Source: Catonia carolina
Taxonomy: Eukaryota > Arthropoda > Insecta > Hemiptera > Achilidae
Reading direction: 5' to 3'
Assembly (NCBI GenBank): GCA_035578175.1
Contig: JAQMRL010000001.1
Location: 430,107,545 to 430,171,544 of the forward strand
DNA: 64,000 nt
The notes beneath the pieces were generated by a model. The model had not been told where the DNA came from. It ran no database searches and saw nothing but the letters and a program-made list of their open reading frames with translations. Shown piece by piece: positions 18,601 to 55,598 of this stretch. Numbering within the stretch: the first letter of the stretch is position 1; every line of letters begins with the position of its first letter. Made by a program: the position numbers and the translations under genes.

Positions 18601-18698
18601 TTTATATCGATCAAATACTTTGATGAATTAAGGTAGCATTTATGGTGTCGCCGACCAGGGCCGACGACACGTGGCGAAACTTTGTCTGTAAAATTAGT

Positions 18699-18714
18699 GG
18701 CCCTGAAAAGGGCC
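18699..18714 (-). terminator. Histone-mRNA-type 3' stem-loop
   Basis: The minus strand reads CAACGGCCCTTTTCAGGGCC-ACT. The six-bp stem, the TTTC loop and the flanking A/C bases match the consensus recognised by stem-loop binding protein in metazoan replication-dependent histone mRNAs. No histone coding sequence lies upstream. Confidence 0.75.
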
Positions 18715-19083
18715 GTTGTTGGCGGTCGGAAGCGGCGAGATGGAAGTGGAGCCCGAAGAGTGACGGCTCGGCTACCGGGATCAGGCCTAGCCTTCCCTCA
18801 GCGGCAGTTGGGTCCCCACTGCAGCGTGGCAGTGGTGGCCCCCAGAGCCCCACAGTGTCGGGTCGGTGTAGGCCGTCTGCCGGTAGCGCGGGCTAGGCGG
18901 CTCTCTCCGAGCCGGCGAAGGCTGACCGGTGCGGGAATATAGCGTCCGCCACCGGTAGCGTAGACCAGGGGTGGTGCGTCTGGTCTCGGCTGGGCTCGTC
19001 CTCTTCAGTCGGGAGCTCTTCTTTCTTCTTCTTGTCCGGTTAAGAGTTCAGTGTAGAGTCAGTCTCGCGGACGAGGGCCCCAT

Positions 19084-19092
19084 CTTAAATAC
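19084..19092 (-). promoter_or_regulatory. TATA-like box of solo LTR A
   Basis: GTATTTAAG on the minus strand, 438 bp from the LTR 3' end. The TATA box of LTR B sits 436 bp from its end, which supports the assignment. Confidence 0.55.
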
Positions 19093-19624
19093 CTCTCCCT
19101 CGAGTCAACAGGATGGTGGAGAGAGGCTGTAGGCTCTGCGCGTCTGTAGCTCTCCGCGCGGCAGGCAGGTAGTGAGACTGTGTGTAGACGCTAATATTGG
19201 AAGGGCAGGCGGCGACAATGGATAAAATAGTAATATAAAAATGTCGAGCAAAGAAAATAAAGTTGACATGAAAATACCTGAAACTATTTTAACTACGAAC
19301 ACTTATGTTTGATACTATACAAGACTACACCTCATACGTCATACAAATCTCTCCTATTACCTATACTATCAGGGATTCCTATTAGGGATTTCTACTATTT
19401 ACCTTGAGTGTTGCTGTGGTTCTGTTGAACTGCTACTCCAGTCCGACGCGGTATCTTCGTGTGAACTGAATTATGTTTATCCATCACCAAAATTCCTCTG
19501 TAACAATAAATTTTCATCATTAGAAACACTGTGCTATCAAAAGAAATAATAAGCGAAAAAAGTTTATCTAAGGTATTTTTTTGGTTTTCCATCCGAGTCG
19601 TTTGCATATTAATACAAATACAAA

Positions 19625-19742
19625 CGATGAAGGGTGATAGATATAAACAAGTGAAAAGATATTGCCAGATCTGACCGGGGATCTAACCCGGTATCCCTAA
19701 CATAGAAGCCAGTTGCGCTGACTGTCACACCGCCGGCCGACC
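19625..19742 (-). mobile_element. tRNA-derived SINE head (family S3)
   Basis: The minus strand reads GGCCGGCGGTGTGACAGTCA, then a B-box-like CGGGTTAGATCCCCGG, then a TCACTTGTTTATAT body resembling that of the SINE at 53.6 kb. The 3' limit is unclear. Confidence 0.55.
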
Positions 19743-20384
19743 GAGTATCTAGTAGTGATGGTAAATAAAGCTATTTTTTGATAACGTGTTATTGAAAATA
19801 ACAGCCTGCTTGATAACAGGATTCTATAACCTGTTATTGAAATAACACTGTTGTCGTCAAGCGTACAATACACCACGGTAAACAGAAGAGATCTCAACTA
19901 TTTACCGAGCAATACACTATAGTAATACGTAATAGCACAACACAAGCGGAAAAGAAGTGAACTAAATTATTCACTGATAGGTAGATTTTTTGTACAAAGA
20001 TTATAAAATGGCTCCTTTCTTGGTACAAAAAATGGCAGTCAATACAAACCGTCCGGTGGCGACACCATGACTCGCTGGATGGTTTGATTATGAGTACTAA
20101 CTTGCTTTAATTCTGTCGTCGCAGGATGCATTATGTATGCATGGCCGCTGACTTCTCTGCTCGGTGTAGGCCTACAGTGTATGTAACTATAGTGCCTCGC
20201 TGTGTTTTCATGAAAGATTCAGTGCGATTGGCCACACTTGTGTTCACGGAAAATTGCGTTTGGTTTGCTGAAGTTGTATTTTTTGTTACAGGAAATAGTA
20301 CTATTCGTCTAAACTTTGTGTCCGTGAGAGATTCAGTGAGATTTGACACCCTTTAGTTTGTATTAATAACAGTATTATAACGTA
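19743..20384. other. Unassigned DNA, possible hAT-like end
   Basis: TAGTGATGGTAAATAAAG at about 19,750 resembles hAT-type ends, and the next 100 bp holds imperfect inverted GATAACAGG/CCTGTTATT blocks. I find no partner end and no 8-bp duplication. No gene is recognised. Confidence 0.3.
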
Positions 20385-21345
20385 GTTAAAATAATAATAA
20401 TAACAGGATAATAATTTATTTATTTCTCCATTGCATTACAATAAACCAGTACACACAAAAACAAGGCTTAGATATCAAATACGAACAAAATTCATTATAA
20501 AAGCATTACATAAATAATACAAGTTAAGAATAAAGATAAATTAGACATAAAATAAGATAAGCCCTATTTCTAAGAAATAATCAAAAACTGAAGAAATATA
20601 CACACCCACAGAAGAGAGGTAAAACCTATCTTATACGTGGGCGGAAGCAAGCAGCTATAAAAACTCTTAAAAAGAAAGAATTTATAATAATTAAAATACT
20701 ACAAGCGTTAAAAAACCAATTATATTTACGACATGATTGCAAACATATTTTCCACAACATGGGAGCAAGTGAAAGCAACCAACTTCTCAACAACAGCCTG
20801 AACCGCTTAGGCAAAACATTGCCAGGCCTAAGAGCACAGGTTAGCGTTATAAAATTTAAAACTAAGAAACACAAAACCCTTTCTGGAATAAGGCACAATT
20901 CGGCTTTGGCCATCGCAATTGATTATTTTGATGACCACCTCGTGGCTCGTGATAATTCATCGGTAGCGACTAAACGGCCCTCATTCCCACTTTTGCGATA
21001 CAATACTTCAAGAACTTTGTAGAAATATAGGTATCTTACCGGCAACATCTTATTTCTTATAAAAAGCGGGCGTGAGTTACTGAAACGTCCCACTTTACTC
21101 AGTATTCTCACAAAACTCTTCTGTAGTACGGCTACAGGCATCAGATTCGTCTTATAAGTGCTGCCCCACAATGTAATACCATACTCCAATTTAGGCTGAA
21201 CAAGTGCAAAATAGATTTGCCTTAACAATGTTGACGGACACACAGAACGAAGTTGATAAAATAGTCTCAACGATAAACGTAAGGAAACTTTAATATTAAA
21301 TATATGTTTTCTCCATGATAAATTTTCATCCATTAATAACGCAAG
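20385..21345 (-). pseudogene. Jockey-like LINE, RT C-terminal part and 3' end
   Basis: The minus strand encodes MDENLSWRKHI at 21,333, then LVQPKLEYGITLWGSTYK and VLQKSFVRILSK. This is the post-catalytic part of a non-LTR reverse transcriptase (the 'connection' region after YADD). The frame runs to about 20,923. A second frame below it continues the similarity, so there is a frameshift. The 3' end is a TTATTA-type tail (about 20,385-20,410). It is heavily 5'-truncated. Confidence 0.7.
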
Positions 21346-21374
21346 AACAACTCAACACAAGAACAACTTTTTGC

Positions 21375-22003
21375 TGGGCAAGACAGAATCGAACAAGTGG
21401 AAGCCTATAACTATCTGGGAACCCGAGTCAATTGCAGTGCAAGCCACCTGCCAGAAATAAAGATCAGAATTGGAAAAGCCAGGGTAGCATTCCTAAAAAT
21501 GAGACCTCTTCTATCGGCCCGCGACCTGAGCCTCGAAACCAGGACCCGCCTCTTGAAGTGCTACGTCTTTTCCATCCTCTTGTATGGGGTAGAGGCGTGG
21601 ACACTCAGCAAAGAATGTGAGATCCGACTACAAGGGTTTGAAATGTGGACCTACCTGAGAATACTTCGAATACTGTGAACGGACAGGGTCACGAATATGG
21701 AGGTCGTCAGAAGAATGGGGAAAGAGCTGGAAATCCTGCAGAGCATAAAGATAAGAAAACTGACATACCTTGGACACATCATGAGGGGGCCTAAATACGA
21801 GATTCTGCATCTCATAATTCAAGGGAAACTCGTTGGTAAACGCTCGGTGGGACGCAGACGAATATCCTGGTTAAGAAACCTGAGAAAAGCGTTTAACTGC
21901 TCGTCGCATGACCTTTTCAGAGCAGCAGTAGACAAGGTACGACTGACCATGATGATAGCCAACCTTCGTAATGGAGAAGGCATCTGAAGAAGAAGAAGAA
22001 GAT
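21375..22003 (+). pseudogene. RTE-like LINE 3' end, one nonsense mutation
   Basis: Encodes the C-terminal 200 residues of the same kind of reverse transcriptase as the LINE at 44.8 kb: EAYNYLGTRVN, LLYGVEAWTL, YLGHIMRG, GKRSVGRRRISWLRNLR. One in-frame TGA at 21,676-21,678 replaces the tryptophan present in the other copy, after which the same frame continues to 21,987. A (GAA)n tail follows directly, as in the other copy. 5'-truncated. Confidence 0.8.
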
Positions 22004-23012
22004 GTTTTTCAATAGTTTAGGCCTAGATCTACCAGAAAAACATTAAATTAGGTCAAAAAAAATAATTTTTTTAATGAAATAATTAAGTTTTTATCAAGTT
22101 TACAAAGAAAAATTATCATGTTACCAAGAAATAATATTTTTCACAATTTTATACTGCTTGTTTTAGTGCAACCCACCGGGTTGGTCTAGAGGTAAAGTCG
22201 TCGCCAAAATCAGCTGTTTAACAGCTGATTTTCGGAGACGAAGGTTCAAATCCTAGTAAAGGTAGTTACTTTTATACGGATTTGAATACTAGACAGTGGT
22301 TACCGGTGTACTTTGATGGTTAGGGTTCAATTAACCATACTCTCTCAGGAATGGTCGGCCTGGGTCGGTACAAGACTACACCTCATTTACACGTCATACA
22401 CATCATCCTCATCTCATTGGGTCATGGGGTTGCTTATTGTTCTAAATTGAACAGATTGCAACGTACACAAATTAGGAATAATAAAAAAAAAAGGTTTCAG
22501 TGCAAAGAGAATTAGGTTTTAAAATATATGCATTACTGTTTTTTGCATTCTCAGCTGTTGATTCAGCTTTCTAAACAACTGTTGATGGGAAATTTACTTG
22601 TTTTTGTACATTTTGTTTTTGATTTGTGCCTTCTTATTCTTACGTTTTCCCGTAAATTTATATTTTTAACACTAGGTACATTTTTTGAGAAACCAATAAA
22701 CCTACCAGGCTGAAATTTGTACCATTTAATTATCTCGTATTTATCGACATTTTTATGAATTCCTCAGACGCTCCAAAAATTAGCAATACGCAAAAAACGT
22801 AGAAACAATTTGTAAATATTTTATGTTATTCGTAATATTTTTAAAAAATGTTGTGGTCCAAAGGTTAAATTGAAAAAAATGTCTGTAGCTCGAGAAGAAA
22901 CCCGACATCTACGGAGTGTAAAGTTTAATTTCCCTATCTTTTACCAATCCTATCAAAATTTACCTAAAAATAAAAAATTTAACATTGGCGGAATACTAAG
23001 TACAGTCTCCCC
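22004..23012 (+). mobile_element. TTAA-flanked DNA element, copy 1, split by a SINE
   Basis: Homologous to 35,003-35,956 and, inverted, to 56,950-57,641. The right end reads CAGTCTCCCC-TTAA (TTAA at 23,013-23,016). The left end is missing where the LINE tail abuts. GGGGAGACTG-type ends next to TTAA suggest a TTAA-targeting (piggyBac-type) non-autonomous element. There is no coding sequence. Confidence 0.65.
22172..22494 (+). mobile_element. tRNA-derived SINE (family S2), full length
   Basis: A box TGGTCTAGAGG (22182-22192), B box GGTTCAAATCC (22243-22253), a 250-bp body and a poly-A tail. It is flanked by TTTTAGTGCAA (22161-22171) and TTTCAGTGCAA (22495-22505). The homologous site at about 35,415 is empty, reading straight from GTTTTAGTGCAA into AGAGAATT. 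The anticodon-loop region holds a palindrome centred on CAGCTGTT/AACAGCTG. Confidence 0.9.
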
Positions 23013-23998
23013 TTAAAGTAAAATTTTTTACCGCCCGTTAAATGAACTATCACATACGGAAATAATTGTGCAGCTCTTTGTAAAGTACCGTAATGTAAAT
23101 TAAAGACAAAAAAACTTTTTACTTTAAGGTAAGAATAGATCTTAACGTTATAAAGTTGTTAAAAGAATTCTATGAAATAATTTTAGCTCTGTGATTAATG
23201 TTATTAGTGTTCCATTTTTTACTTATTAAAGTAAAACTTTTCAACGCTTGATCATTAGTAACCTGAATAAAATTATGTTTCATTAAAAATGTTTTAATAA
23301 AAATTATGTTTCGATCATTGTTAACAAGTTATTGTTAAGTTACTTGCAAAATTAATGTATTGTTCTATACATTATTTTATTGATTTATATTTAGTATTAG
23401 CAATATTTCTCTTATTTCCCTTCACGGTAAACTAAACTAAAATCGTTTAACTTCTCACACAAGTCGAAAGCAAAATCATCAAATTCAGTTAGCGAAATTA
23501 TCCAAAAATTAAATTTTTTACTGTGAAACGAATATCAAATTTCATAAATATATTTTCAAAAAAATAATTTAAATTAGCATTTTAAAGTGTTTTTGTACAA
23601 ATAATAAGTTTTAAAGATTTATCAAAGGAAAACTTTAGTGGGATCCTGGAAAGTAGACCGGGAGGCCATCTTGTTTACTTGGCATCTCAACACGAGTCTG
23701 TACCAAACGATCGTTACCAGCCATTTATATTTTCTCTTTAAAAGCATTTATTAAATTTTATGAGTATTTTAAAATTACGATTCAGACACGAATTTCAGAG
23801 AATTTTTAATGAATAATAGTCGATGTATCAATTCCAAAGAGTTCAGTAATCTTAAGTTATTGTTAGGTCATGATTTGTCTACACCTACCGACACAAGGCA
23901 AACCCGAATATACTTTTGATATCATAATAATATTTTTTTTTTTGTAAAACAAATTTCACCGGATGGCGACATTAAGTGGCTAACCTTATTAGTTTGGT

Positions 23999-24014
23999 GG
24001 CCCTGAAAAGGGCC
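23999..24014 (-). terminator. Histone-mRNA-type 3' stem-loop
   Basis: The minus strand reads AAACGGCCCTTTTCAGGGCC-ACCA, a perfect match to the histone 3'-end consensus including the ACCA flank where cleavage occurs in histone mRNAs. No histone gene is nearby. Confidence 0.78.
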
Positions 24015-24389
24015 GTTTAAGCGGTGGTCGTCTTGGAGAGGGGTCGGTCGAGGAGCTGGGCGACACGGCGTGTCGTCATCCAGCGGAGACGTCATCTCCT
24101 TCCCTGGCAGTAGTGCGCCGATGGCTGCTTCGTCGGGTCCGTTGGGCGTAAGGCTCGGTCGAGAGACTGCTGTGGGCATCGCTTGCGTCAGCGGGCGATG
24201 ACGGTCCGGTCGACGGCTTACGATGACGGGTCGGCGAGCGGAAGCATCATCTTCTCTCTTGCGGGGTCGTCGATTAGTCTCGCTGGAGTCCAGCAGCCGT
24301 GTGCCGTGGTGGATGTCTTGTCGATGCTGTCAGGTGGAAGTGAATCCCTCGGTGTCTTGATCGGAATTGAAACTCTGCTCAGAGTAGCG

Positions 24390-24403
24390 CTATATATTTA
24401 TAG
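24390..24403 (-). promoter_or_regulatory. TATA box of solo LTR B
   Basis: CTATAAATATATAG on the minus strand, followed about 30 bp on by CTCTGAGCAGAG, a plausible start-site region. Confidence 0.6.
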
Positions 24404-24903
24404 CTGTGGTAGAGAGCGGCTACTGGCCTGGCCTTGATGACAAGGCCTTTGCGGTGCGCAGCCGAAAGGTTTGTCGCTATGCCGTCAAAGGCCGGGAGAA
24501 CTATTGAAGCCGGAAACACGTAAATGATTAATTAGAAGGGGTGGCGGTGACACAAAAATAGATTTTTAAAAATATACATTTATAATATAATTTAAAAATG
24601 TATTTTAAGAGATTTTGAAAATTTAAATATTACCTAATTTCTAAAGACTGATTGATAAGAATTTACCAGTGAGATCCCGGACTGGTGACCGCGAGGCCAT
24701 CTTGTTTACTCAGTATCTCATTACGAGACAATAAAGAATGTTCGGTACATACCAACCATAATATATATTGTTTTTCTACCGAATAAAAAGATTTTAATAA
24801 ATTTGTTTCAGTAGTATATTTAAACACGTATTACAAGAGATTCTTTAAAAATAAATCACTAATATAATTTTTAAGATTGTTCAAAAAAATTCAATGTTGA
24901 GAT

Positions 24904-48130: not shown

Positions 48131-48907
48131 TACGAGGGCTATTCAGAAAGTAGGGAACGTTTTGTAAATAAACAAAAACTATGTAAAAGAAAAATTTTTT
48201 ATTATATACATCTGAAAGAGTGACTAAAATACTACTATTTTACATAGTCACCAAGCAAATTGAGGCACTTGTCATAGCGGTGGACAAGCTTCAAAATTCC
48301 TTCGTCATAGAAATCCGCCGCCTGCGACCGCAGCCACTCAGTGACGCGCGCCCGGAGTTCCTCGTCGTCGTCGAAGCGCTATGTTGCTAGCCAGAGTAAT
48401 AGCCAGAATAATAAACTCTGATCGGTACTACCAAACATTGCGCAACCTTAGGAGAGCAGTTCAAAACAAGCGCCAAGGAAAGTTGTCGTCAAAAATTTTG
48501 TTTCTTCATGACAATGCCCGACCTCACACGGCAAACCGCACAAAAGAACTCCTTGATTCATTCAAATGGGAGGTTTTCCCTCATCCACCCTATAGTCCTG
48601 ATCTTGCACCGAGTGATTTTCACTTGTTTCCAAGAATGAAGAACTGGCTAGCAACACAGCTCTCCGACGACGACGAGGAACTCCGGGCGCGCGTCACTGA
48701 GTGGCAGCGGTCGCAGGCGGCGGATTTCTATGACGAAGGAATTTTGAAGCTTGTCCACCGCTATGACAAGTGCCTCAATTTGCTTGGTGACTATGAAGAA
48801 AAGTAGTATTTTAGTCACTCTTTCAGATGTATATAATAAAAATTTTTTCTTTTACATAGTTTTTGTTTATTTACAAAACGTTCCCTACTTTCTGAATAGC
48901 CCTCGTA
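48131..48907 (+). mobile_element. mariner element M4 (second family) with 243-bp inverted ends
   Basis: TA-CGAGGGCTATTCAGAAAGTA ends with TA duplication. The left arm 48131-48373 is a near-identical reverse-complement copy of the right arm 48665-48907, which includes the end of the transposase gene; both are 243 bp. Only about 290 bp of unique transposase sequence separates them. It is clearly a different family from M1-M3, yet has the same architecture. Confidence 0.9.
48381..48806 (+). CDS. Truncated mariner transposase, C-terminal half (M4)
   Basis: Uninterrupted from the arm junction to a stop at 48,806. It contains HDNARPHT with the second catalytic Asp and YSPDLAPSD with the third, 34 residues between them (DD34D). 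The first catalytic Asp and the whole N-terminal DNA-binding part are gone, and the Met at 48,381 is not a native start. The C-terminal 45 residues (from DDDEELRARV) are encoded a second time, in opposite orientation, by the left arm. Non-functional as a transposase, but recently active by its good conservation. Confidence 0.82.
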   Translation: MLLARVIARIINSDRYYQTLRNLRRAVQNKRQGKLSSKILFLHDNARPHTANRTKELLDSFKWEVFPHPPYSPDLAPSDFHLFPRMKNWLATQLSDDDEELRARVTEWQRSQAADFYDEGILKLVHRYDKCLNLLGDYEEK

Positions 48908-54682: not shown

Positions 54683-55598
54683 TACAAGGTGTGGCTATTA
54701 AATAACGAGACTGACGTTGTGAAATTTTTTTTATACATAATCACTTATTGTCACCTTCAATAAACACTCCTTCTCTATCCCTACAACGCTCCATGCGAAT
54801 TATCCATTGTTGGAAACAGTGCTGGAAGTCATCTTCTGTCAGCTCCTTCAGGACACGAGCTGCTTTCTCTTTTACAGCTTCCACAGACTCAAATTTTGTC
54901 CATTTTAATGCAGACGTAACCTTATGGAACAGGTACAAGTCACATGATGCAAGATCTGGTGAATAAGGTGGATGTTCTAACACTGAGATGCTGTACTTGG
55001 CTAGGAACCTCTTGACAGATAACGCAGAATGAGCCGGCGCATTGTCTTGGTGGAGAAACCATGATTTGCCCTTCCACATTTCGGGGCGTTTTTTCCTTAC
55101 TCTTTGACGTACTTTAGAGAGTACCTCAAGGTAGTAATATTGATTAATTGTTTGACCTTCAGGAACCCAGTGAAGGTACAGAATCCCATGGATATAAAAA
55201 AAACAATCATCATTGCTTTAAATTTTGACTTGCTCATTCAAGCGTTTTTGGCTTTTGGTGAAGTTCGGCTCTTCCAGTGCATGGATTGGCGCTTCGTTTC
55301 CGGATTATAAGTAAAAGACTACGTTTCATCACATGTTATTATCGTTTCCAAAAAATTTAGGTCATTTTCAATCGCGTACAAAGTGTCGGTACAAATATTT
55401 TTGCGAGCTTCATTTCAAACATTTTTAAGCGGCACATGTATGACTTCCAGCACTGTTTTCAACAATGGAAAATTTGCATGGAGCGTTGTAGGGATAGAGA
55501 AAGAGGGTATATTGAAGGTGACAATAAGTTATTATGTATAAAATTAAAATAAAATGTTTTACAAAGTCAGTCTCGTTATTTAATAGTCACACTTCGTA
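54683..55598 (-). mobile_element. mariner element, copy M3, with inverted 3' ends
   Basis: Same family as M1 and M2. The left arm 54683-54864 and right arm 55428-55598 are inverted copies; the right arm lacks about 18 bp. The junction between arm and transposase (AAACATTTTTRAGCGGCAC, read on the plus strand here) is the same as in M1, so M1 and M3 descend from one rearranged ancestor that moved. Confidence 0.87.
54741..55079 (-). CDS. mariner transposase C-terminal third (M3), truncated
   Basis: 112 codons open from MWKGKSWFLHQDNAPAH, with the second catalytic Asp in QDNAPAH and the third in YSPDLASCD, 34 residues apart, ending EGDNK. Upstream the frame is broken; the first Asp motif is followed by a stop (near 55,320), and the DNA-binding domain is absent. 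It is the best-preserved reading frame of this family in the window but cannot encode a whole enzyme. Confidence 0.8.
   Translation of the reverse strand: MWKGKSWFLHQDNAPAHSALSVKRFLAKYSISVLEHPPYSPDLASCDLYLFHKVTSALKWTKFESVEAVKEKAARVLKELTEDDFQHCFQQWIIRMERCRDREGVFIEGDNK

What the first reader, a model, noticed from the sequence alone, without database searches (positions are those of the whole stretch)
18646..24552. Two LTRs that carry a histone-mRNA 3' stem-loop instead of a visible poly(A) signal
Solo LTRs at 18,646-19,217 and 23,954-24,552 (4-bp duplications ATGG and CAAA) differ in most of their sequence. Yet both keep, on the same strand, a TATA box 436-438 bp from the LTR 3' end and a perfect GGCCCTTTTCAGGGCC stem-loop 45-53 bp from that end, with A/C-rich flanks as in histone mRNAs. 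I see no AATAAA. In replication-dependent histone genes this element directs SLBP/U7-dependent cleavage without polyadenylation (established). I infer that this retroelement may form its R/U5 border by the histone pathway, which would tie its RNA to S phase. I do not recall a described case but could not search.
Basis: partly seen in the sequence, partly recalled or inferred. Interest (0 to 1): 0.88.

Follow-up and report, generated by a model that had tools for sequence, protein, structure and literature searches.

The report
Retrotransposon ending its RNA like histones
Retrotransposon end-repeats, likely thousands of them, in this probably sap-sucking insect carry the same RNA stem-loop and the same downstream motif as the insect's own histone genes, so these mobile elements likely finish their RNA by the histone route, without a poly(A) tail, which would tie them to the phase of DNA copying.

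Summary
Both window LTRs (18646-19217, 23954-24552, minus strand, TSDs ATGG and CAAA) carry a perfect GGCCCTTTTCAGGGCC stem-loop (SL). The 16-mer occurs 5784 times in the 1.47-Gb genome (reversed control 0). The native histone cluster uses the identical SL followed by [A/G]AGGTT, the candidate U7-binding element (HDE). LTRs share it: 52 of 73 non-histone SL sites, against 15 of 1298 control windows.

The window LTRs align to each other only at the SL. A 7.2-kb Ty3/gypsy element (L009) with identical 1.13-kb LTRs has a third, otherwise unalignable LTR with two SL-AAGGTT modules. Copies fetched with probes lacking the SL carry an SL in 39 of 39 cases in each window family.

I conclude that several LTR families likely form their R/U5 border by SLBP/U7/CPSF73 cleavage. 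This is inferred: no RNA data, and no U7 gene was identified. Covariation is modest in one family and absent in the other. ATTAAA occurs in 15 of 39 win1-type copies, and missing AATAAA is weak evidence in GC-rich LTRs. Nine paper searches found no such element in print.

The parts
18646..19217 (-). solo LTR, 'win1' type (TGTCGCC..GGCGACA, 4-bp TSD ATGG)
   Evidence: 2899 first-look candidates genome-wide for a probe from it
19085..19091 (-). TATA-like box TATTTAA
18699..18714 (-). histone-type stem-loop GGCCCTTTTCAGGGCC
   Evidence: (Rfam Histone3 37.6 bits)
18677..18683 (-). candidate histone downstream element AAAGTTT, 15 nt after the stem (variant of AAGGTTT)
   Evidence: AAGGTT 14-15 nt after the last SL in 30 of 39 relatives
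23954..24552 (-). solo LTR, 'win2' type (TGTCACC..GGTGAAA, 4-bp TSD CAAA)
   Evidence: 4249 first-look candidates genome-wide for a probe from it
24391..24402 (-). TATA box TATAAATATATA
23999..24014 (-). histone-type stem-loop GGCCCTTTTCAGGGCC
23982..23987 (-). candidate histone downstream element AAGGTT, 11 nt after the stem
   Evidence: AAGGTT in 36 of 39 relatives

Best explanation
These are solo LTRs of retrotransposon families whose LTRs carry the host's complete histone 3'-end signal, the stem-loop plus a downstream AAGGTT motif, and they likely use it in place of a poly(A) signal to end their genomic RNA. Anatomy (shown): TATA box, about 400 bp in the window families, SL with A/C flanks, 9-18 nt spacer, AAGGTT, LTR end. 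Mechanism (inferred): Pol II starts about 30 nt after the TATA box; in the 3' LTR, SLBP binds the SL, U7 snRNP pairs with AAGGTT, and CPSF73 cuts 4-5 nt after the stem. The RNA would then end in the SL, R would run from the start site to the SL, and U5 would be the remaining roughly 40-105 nt that hold the HDE. The RNA would be non-polyadenylated and histone-like in timing. The 5' LTR carries the same signals and must be read through or give a short RNA.
For: (1) The genome's own histone genes (H3, H1, H2B, H2A, H4 in L015) use the identical SL, then [A/G]AGGTT 14-17 nt later in 15 of 18 sites. (2) 52 of 73 exact SL sites in non-histone loci have AAGGTT 9-18 nt after the stem, against 15 of 1298 control windows for [A/G]AGGTT; the sites were chosen by the SL, not by AAGGTT. 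(3) win1, win2 and L009 LTRs align to one another only at the SL block, so the module is kept, or was gained, in LTRs that have otherwise lost similarity; spacer lengths differ (11, 15, 18 nt) while AAGGTT stays. (4) Probes without the SL bring back copies with an SL in 39 of 39 and 39 of 39 cases. (5) A full-length Ty3/gypsy element with 100% identical LTRs (L009) and two short elements with 99.8% identical LTRs, PBS and PPT (L011, L012) carry it, so it sits in recently moving elements, upstream of the LTR 3' end where an R/U5 border is expected. (6) Predicted folding keeps all six SL pairs at 0.83 or more in three whole LTRs. (7) Rfam Histone3 scores LTR copies (34.3-41.1 bits) like native histone genes (35.4-40.7).
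Against: No RNA evidence exists here. No U7 gene with an AACCTT-type 5' end was found, though the search was incomplete. AAGGTT was missing after 21 of 73 sites, 3 of 39 win2-type and 9 of 39 win1-type copies. Only 28 of 39 win1-type copies hold a fully paired SL. Covariation: in the win2 set the score beats 500 of 500 shuffles, but pairs changed on both sides do not stand out (78 of 500 shuffles reach it), and the win1 set shows no double change at pair 3. ATTAAA occurs in 15 of 39 win1-type copies; absence of AATAAA elsewhere is weak. 12 of 20 loci scanned gave no Rfam hit at gathering. An AATAAA lies 43 nt upstream of the 3' LTR in L009.
Confidence: 0.72

Rival explanations
1. The stem-loop binds SLBP but serves translation, stability, export or packaging of the element RNA, while the 3' end is made by ordinary cleavage and polyadenylation at a weak or non-canonical signal.
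For: ATTAAA lies in the A-rich flank of a second SL in 15 of 39 win1-type copies; AATAAA lies 43 nt before the 3' LTR in L009; AATAAA lies 8 nt before the SL in 5 of 18 native histone sites.
Against: It does not explain why the downstream AAGGTT, which would be absent from the mature RNA, is kept beside the SL as in histone genes; no AATAAA/ATTAAA in the L009 LTR or the two window LTRs, and in 1 of 39 win2-type copies; an AATAAA before the 3' LTR would leave no R at the RNA 3' end.
Confidence: 0.15
2. The SL-AAGGTT block is a passenger: a captured histone 3' end that spread between LTR families by recombination and has no role.
For: The SL is identical, letter for letter, to the native histone SL, which fits capture; tandem duplicates of the block occur.
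Against: Three LTR families keep it in the same place near the LTR 3' end with otherwise unalignable sequence and different spacers; it is present in recently inserted elements.
Confidence: 0.1
3. These are not LTRs but histone pseudogenes or another repeat with a chance resemblance.
For: Only 26 of 73 exact SL sites lie in a strictly delimited TGT..ACA-type unit with a 4-bp duplication, and some of those delimitations may be chance.
Against: Paired LTRs with PBS, PPT and gag-pol between them; the genome-wide motif count is 5784 against 0 for the reversed control; 0 of 101 chance hits in phage contigs have histone-like flanks.
Confidence: 0.03

Closest known systems
Ty3/gypsy (Metaviridae) LTR retrotransposons
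   Same: gag, PR-RT-RNaseH-IN order, PBS, PPT and 4-bp TSD in L009; closest named pols are insect K02A2.6-like and gypsy-type proteins
   Different: LTR carries histone 3'-end signals and no canonical poly(A) signal; known LTR elements use AATAAA-type polyadenylation at the R/U5 border (established knowledge, recalled)
Replication-dependent histone genes (SLBP/U7/CPSF73 3'-end processing)
   Same: identical SL, AAAC/ACCAA flanks and downstream [A/G]AGGTT motif as this genome's own histone genes
   Different: sits in an LTR, so it is present at both ends of the element and would define R/U5 instead of a simple mRNA end
TRIM/LARD-type short non-autonomous LTR elements
   Same: L011 and L012: two LTRs 832-896 bp apart, PBS and PPT, no coding region
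   Different: carry the histone 3'-end module

Membership tests
Replication-dependent histone 3'-end signal | 6-bp stem, 4-nt loop, A/C flanks (Rfam RF00032) | tested here: met
   37.6 bits for win1; 7 LTR loci among the 20 sources reach gathering; the win2 LTR itself does not reach gathering
Replication-dependent histone 3'-end signal | HDE shared with the host's histone genes | tested here: met
   [A/G]AGGTT in 15 of 18 native histone sites, AAGGTT in 52 of 73 non-histone sites, controls 15 of 1298
Replication-dependent histone 3'-end signal | HDE pairs with the 5' end of host U7 snRNA | tested here: inconclusive
   no U7 gene identified; only 65 of 514528 first-look candidates were scored, and its control genomes did not ring either
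Replication-dependent histone 3'-end signal | RNA ends 4-5 nt after the stem without poly(A) | not testable with these tools
   no RNA data
LTR retrotransposon | paired LTRs, PBS, PPT, target-site duplication | tested here: met
   L009, L011, L012; for the two window copies only the solo LTR and 4-bp TSD
Ty3/gypsy | gag and PR-RT-RH-IN domain order | tested here: met
   L009 only; coding partners of the win1 and win2 LTR families were not found, so their clade is untested
Standard poly(A)-dependent LTR element | AATAAA-type signal near the R/U5 border | tested here: inconclusive
   absent in the two window LTRs and L009; ATTAAA in 15 of 39 win1-type and 1 of 39 win2-type copies; shuffles show absence is expected in most cases

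The most novel reading that the evidence does not exclude
Several LTR retrotransposon families of one insect genome, at least one of them Ty3/gypsy, have replaced polyadenylation with the complete histone SL-HDE system, so their genomic RNA is non-polyadenylated, made in S phase and perhaps at the histone locus body, with R defined by the stem-loop; in L009 the 5' LTR would in addition make a short histone-like mRNA for an LTR-encoded 155-aa protein.
Probability: 0.55. Interest if true: 0.95.

Novelty: new variant of a known kind. Interest (0 to 1): 0.87.

Why it matters
If true, a retroelement lineage has left the poly(A) pathway and borrowed the only other metazoan mRNA 3'-end machinery. That would couple its RNA to DNA replication, hide it from poly(A)-selected RNA sequencing, and make every such LTR an SLBP/U7 substrate. 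Thousands of copies would be a natural library of histone 3'-end signals and might titrate SLBP/U7. It also poses a clean question: how the same signal is ignored in the 5' LTR.

Tried and rejected
Chance: rejected. Histone pseudogenes: rejected by paired LTRs, PBS, PPT and gag-pol. Phage/viral relatives: 101 IMG/VR stretches with GGCYCTTTTCAGRGCC, 0 of 101 with histone-like flanks by a strict rule (5 nt after the stem and 3 nt before it A or C). U7 snRNA: RF00066 gave nothing (65 of 514528 candidates scored, control genomes also silent). Pattern AACCTT..AATTTGTCTWG gave 12 matches (control 29), all 12 inspected. Pattern AAACCT..AATTTGTCTNG gave 29 (control 27), of which 25 were inspected, 5 of those already among the 12. 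None was convincing: 8 of them are one other repeat family, and Rfam at E up to 3 found no U7 in 20 of these 32 loci. LTR ORF of L009: no Pfam, no PDB, no homolog among proteins. The genome-wide count of the compensated variant and copies of the L009 LTR did not complete.

Papers: (9 searches; only open-licence PMC text is held) listed no LTR element with a histone 3' end. I saw listings only, except passages of PMC7026596.
Full report
OBSERVATION. Two solo LTRs on the minus strand, 18646-19217 and 23954-24552, have 4-bp duplications ATGG and CAAA, TATA-like boxes and a perfect GGCCCTTTTCAGGGCC 53 and 45 nt from the 3' end. Chance expectation for two such sites with up to 3 mismatches in the window is 0.04. 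Rfam Histone3 reaches gathering for the first (37.6 bits) and not for the second. With the SL masked the two LTRs have no blastn match above that of shuffled sequence (18.4 bits against a maximum of 26.5 in 60 shuffles).

GENOME. The window lies in a 1.47-Gb assembly in which the exact 16-mer occurs 2887 + 2897 times, against 0 for the reversed pattern. 26 of the roughly 100 listed places lie at C1:21.00-21.29 Mb. Loci from there hold the native histone cluster: L015 has open frames for H3, H1, H2B, H2A and H4. Its H1 is closest, among named proteins, to Macrosteles quadrilineatus (92% over 40% of the query) and Clastoptera arizonana (88% over 39%), so the host is likely an auchenorrhynchan bug.

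SHARED SIGNAL. In the four histone loci 15 of 18 SL sites have [A/G]AGGTT 14, 16 or 17 nt after the stem. In non-histone loci 52 of 73 exact SL sites have AAGGTT 9-18 nt after it; [A/G]AGGTT occurs in 15 of 1298 control windows upstream in the same loci and in 0 of 304 for the histone loci. The position and the established role of such an element (U7 pairs with the HDE; CPSF73 cuts between SL and HDE; fly U7 cuts 4 nt after the stem, mouse 5; passages of PMC7026596) make it the candidate HDE. The window copies read AAAGTTT (win1) and AAGGTT (win2).

UNBIASED COPIES. A probe from the win2 LTR that stops 47 nt before the SL gave 4249 first-look candidates, of which 40 were scored. I took 171 nt at the 3' side of all 39 matches other than the window's own. 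39 of 39 hold an SL-like 16-mer (at least 12 of 16 letters, a rule that favours the SL); 45 of 53 SLs have all six pairs; AAGGTT is in 36 of 39; pair 3 is C-G in 35 and T-A in 15 of 53. Counting pairs on 23 distinct rows: 94.2% of cells paired (5 of 500 shuffles reach it), covariation score 0.185 against 0.136 (0 of 500), but pairs changed on both sides 2 (78 of 500). The rows are related, so this is modest support. A win1 probe (2899 candidates, 40 scored) gave 39 further copies: 39 of 39 with an SL, 28 of 39 with a fully paired one, 33 of 58 SLs fully paired, AAGGTT after the last SL in 30 of 39. One of those 58 is probably a chance match (L266). The commonest fault is G to A at the first stem base, which lies in a CpG; there are no double changes at pair 3. 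ATTAAA occurs in 15 of 39, in the A-rich flank of a second SL.

ELEMENTS. Of 72 exact SL sites with enough upstream sequence, 44 are win2-type, 19 win1-type and 9 unassigned. L009 is a 7.2-kb element: LTRs 100% identical over 1130 bp, TSD ACCT (read), PBS TGGCGCCCAACGTGGGG 4 nt after the 5' LTR, G-rich PPT, gag (361-aa frame) and pol (1111-aa frame) with PR, RT, RNase H and integrase domains, and no room for env. Its LTR matches win1 and win2 only at the SL. It has two modules: an imperfect SL with AAGGTT 9 nt later and a perfect SL with AAGGTT 18 nt later. No AATAAA/ATTAAA is in this LTR, though 372 of 1000 shuffles contain one. L011 and L012 are short elements with 99.8% identical win2-type LTRs, PBS TGGCGCCCGAACGTGGGG and PPT. 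No coding element was found for win1 or win2.

START SITE. L007 is a copy of the L009-type LTR that begins exactly at LTR position 189, 36 nt after the TATA box, runs to the LTR 3' end and has a 4-bp duplication CTCT. It looks like an inserted R-U5 (strong-stop) piece and points to position 189 as the start of R (inference). R would then be about 840 nt in this family and about 400 nt in the window families.

MECHANISM. Shown: shared SL, flanks, AAGGTT and placement. Inferred: SLBP binding, U7 pairing, cleavage 4-5 nt after the stem, no poly(A), R/U5 border there, S-phase timing. Not found: the U7 gene. The 5' LTR problem (same signals at both ends) is unsolved; in L009 a short RNA ended at the 5' LTR could encode the 155-aa frame that stops 25 nt before the SL, as in a histone mRNA.

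VERDICT. In the open-licence text that I could search, nine searches listed no described case.

Noticed in passing
L007:703-1624 (G000:C1): Copy of the L009-type LTR from position 189 to the LTR 3' end with 4-bp duplication CTCT: looks like an integrated R-U5 strong-stop DNA inside another transposon-like sequence.
   Followed up: partly
L009:7350-7814 (minus) and L007:1023-1472: A 155-aa open frame inside the LTR stops 25 nt before the histone stem-loop; it stays open in L007 across a 15-nt in-frame deletion; no homologs found.
   Followed up: partly
L013, L014, L020, L028, L170, L175, L258: Tandem arrays of 2-4 stem-loops in one LTR, some as SL-AAGGTT-SL, some with the compensated stem GGTCC..GGACC or loop TCTC.
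   Followed up: partly
L009, 43 nt upstream of the 3' LTR: An AATAAA just before the polypurine tract of the full-length element.
   Followed up: no
window:44762-46309 (minus): 515-aa frame that reads like a non-LTR retrotransposon reverse transcriptase (read by eye).
   Followed up: no
window:14291-14821, 48345-48806, 54741-55217: Open frames that read like mariner/Tc1-type transposase pieces (by eye).
   Followed up: no
L015 H2B and H4 3' ends: 5 of 18 native histone SL sites have AATAAA 8 nt before the stem, so a poly(A) hexamer beside the SL need not mean polyadenylation.
   Followed up: no
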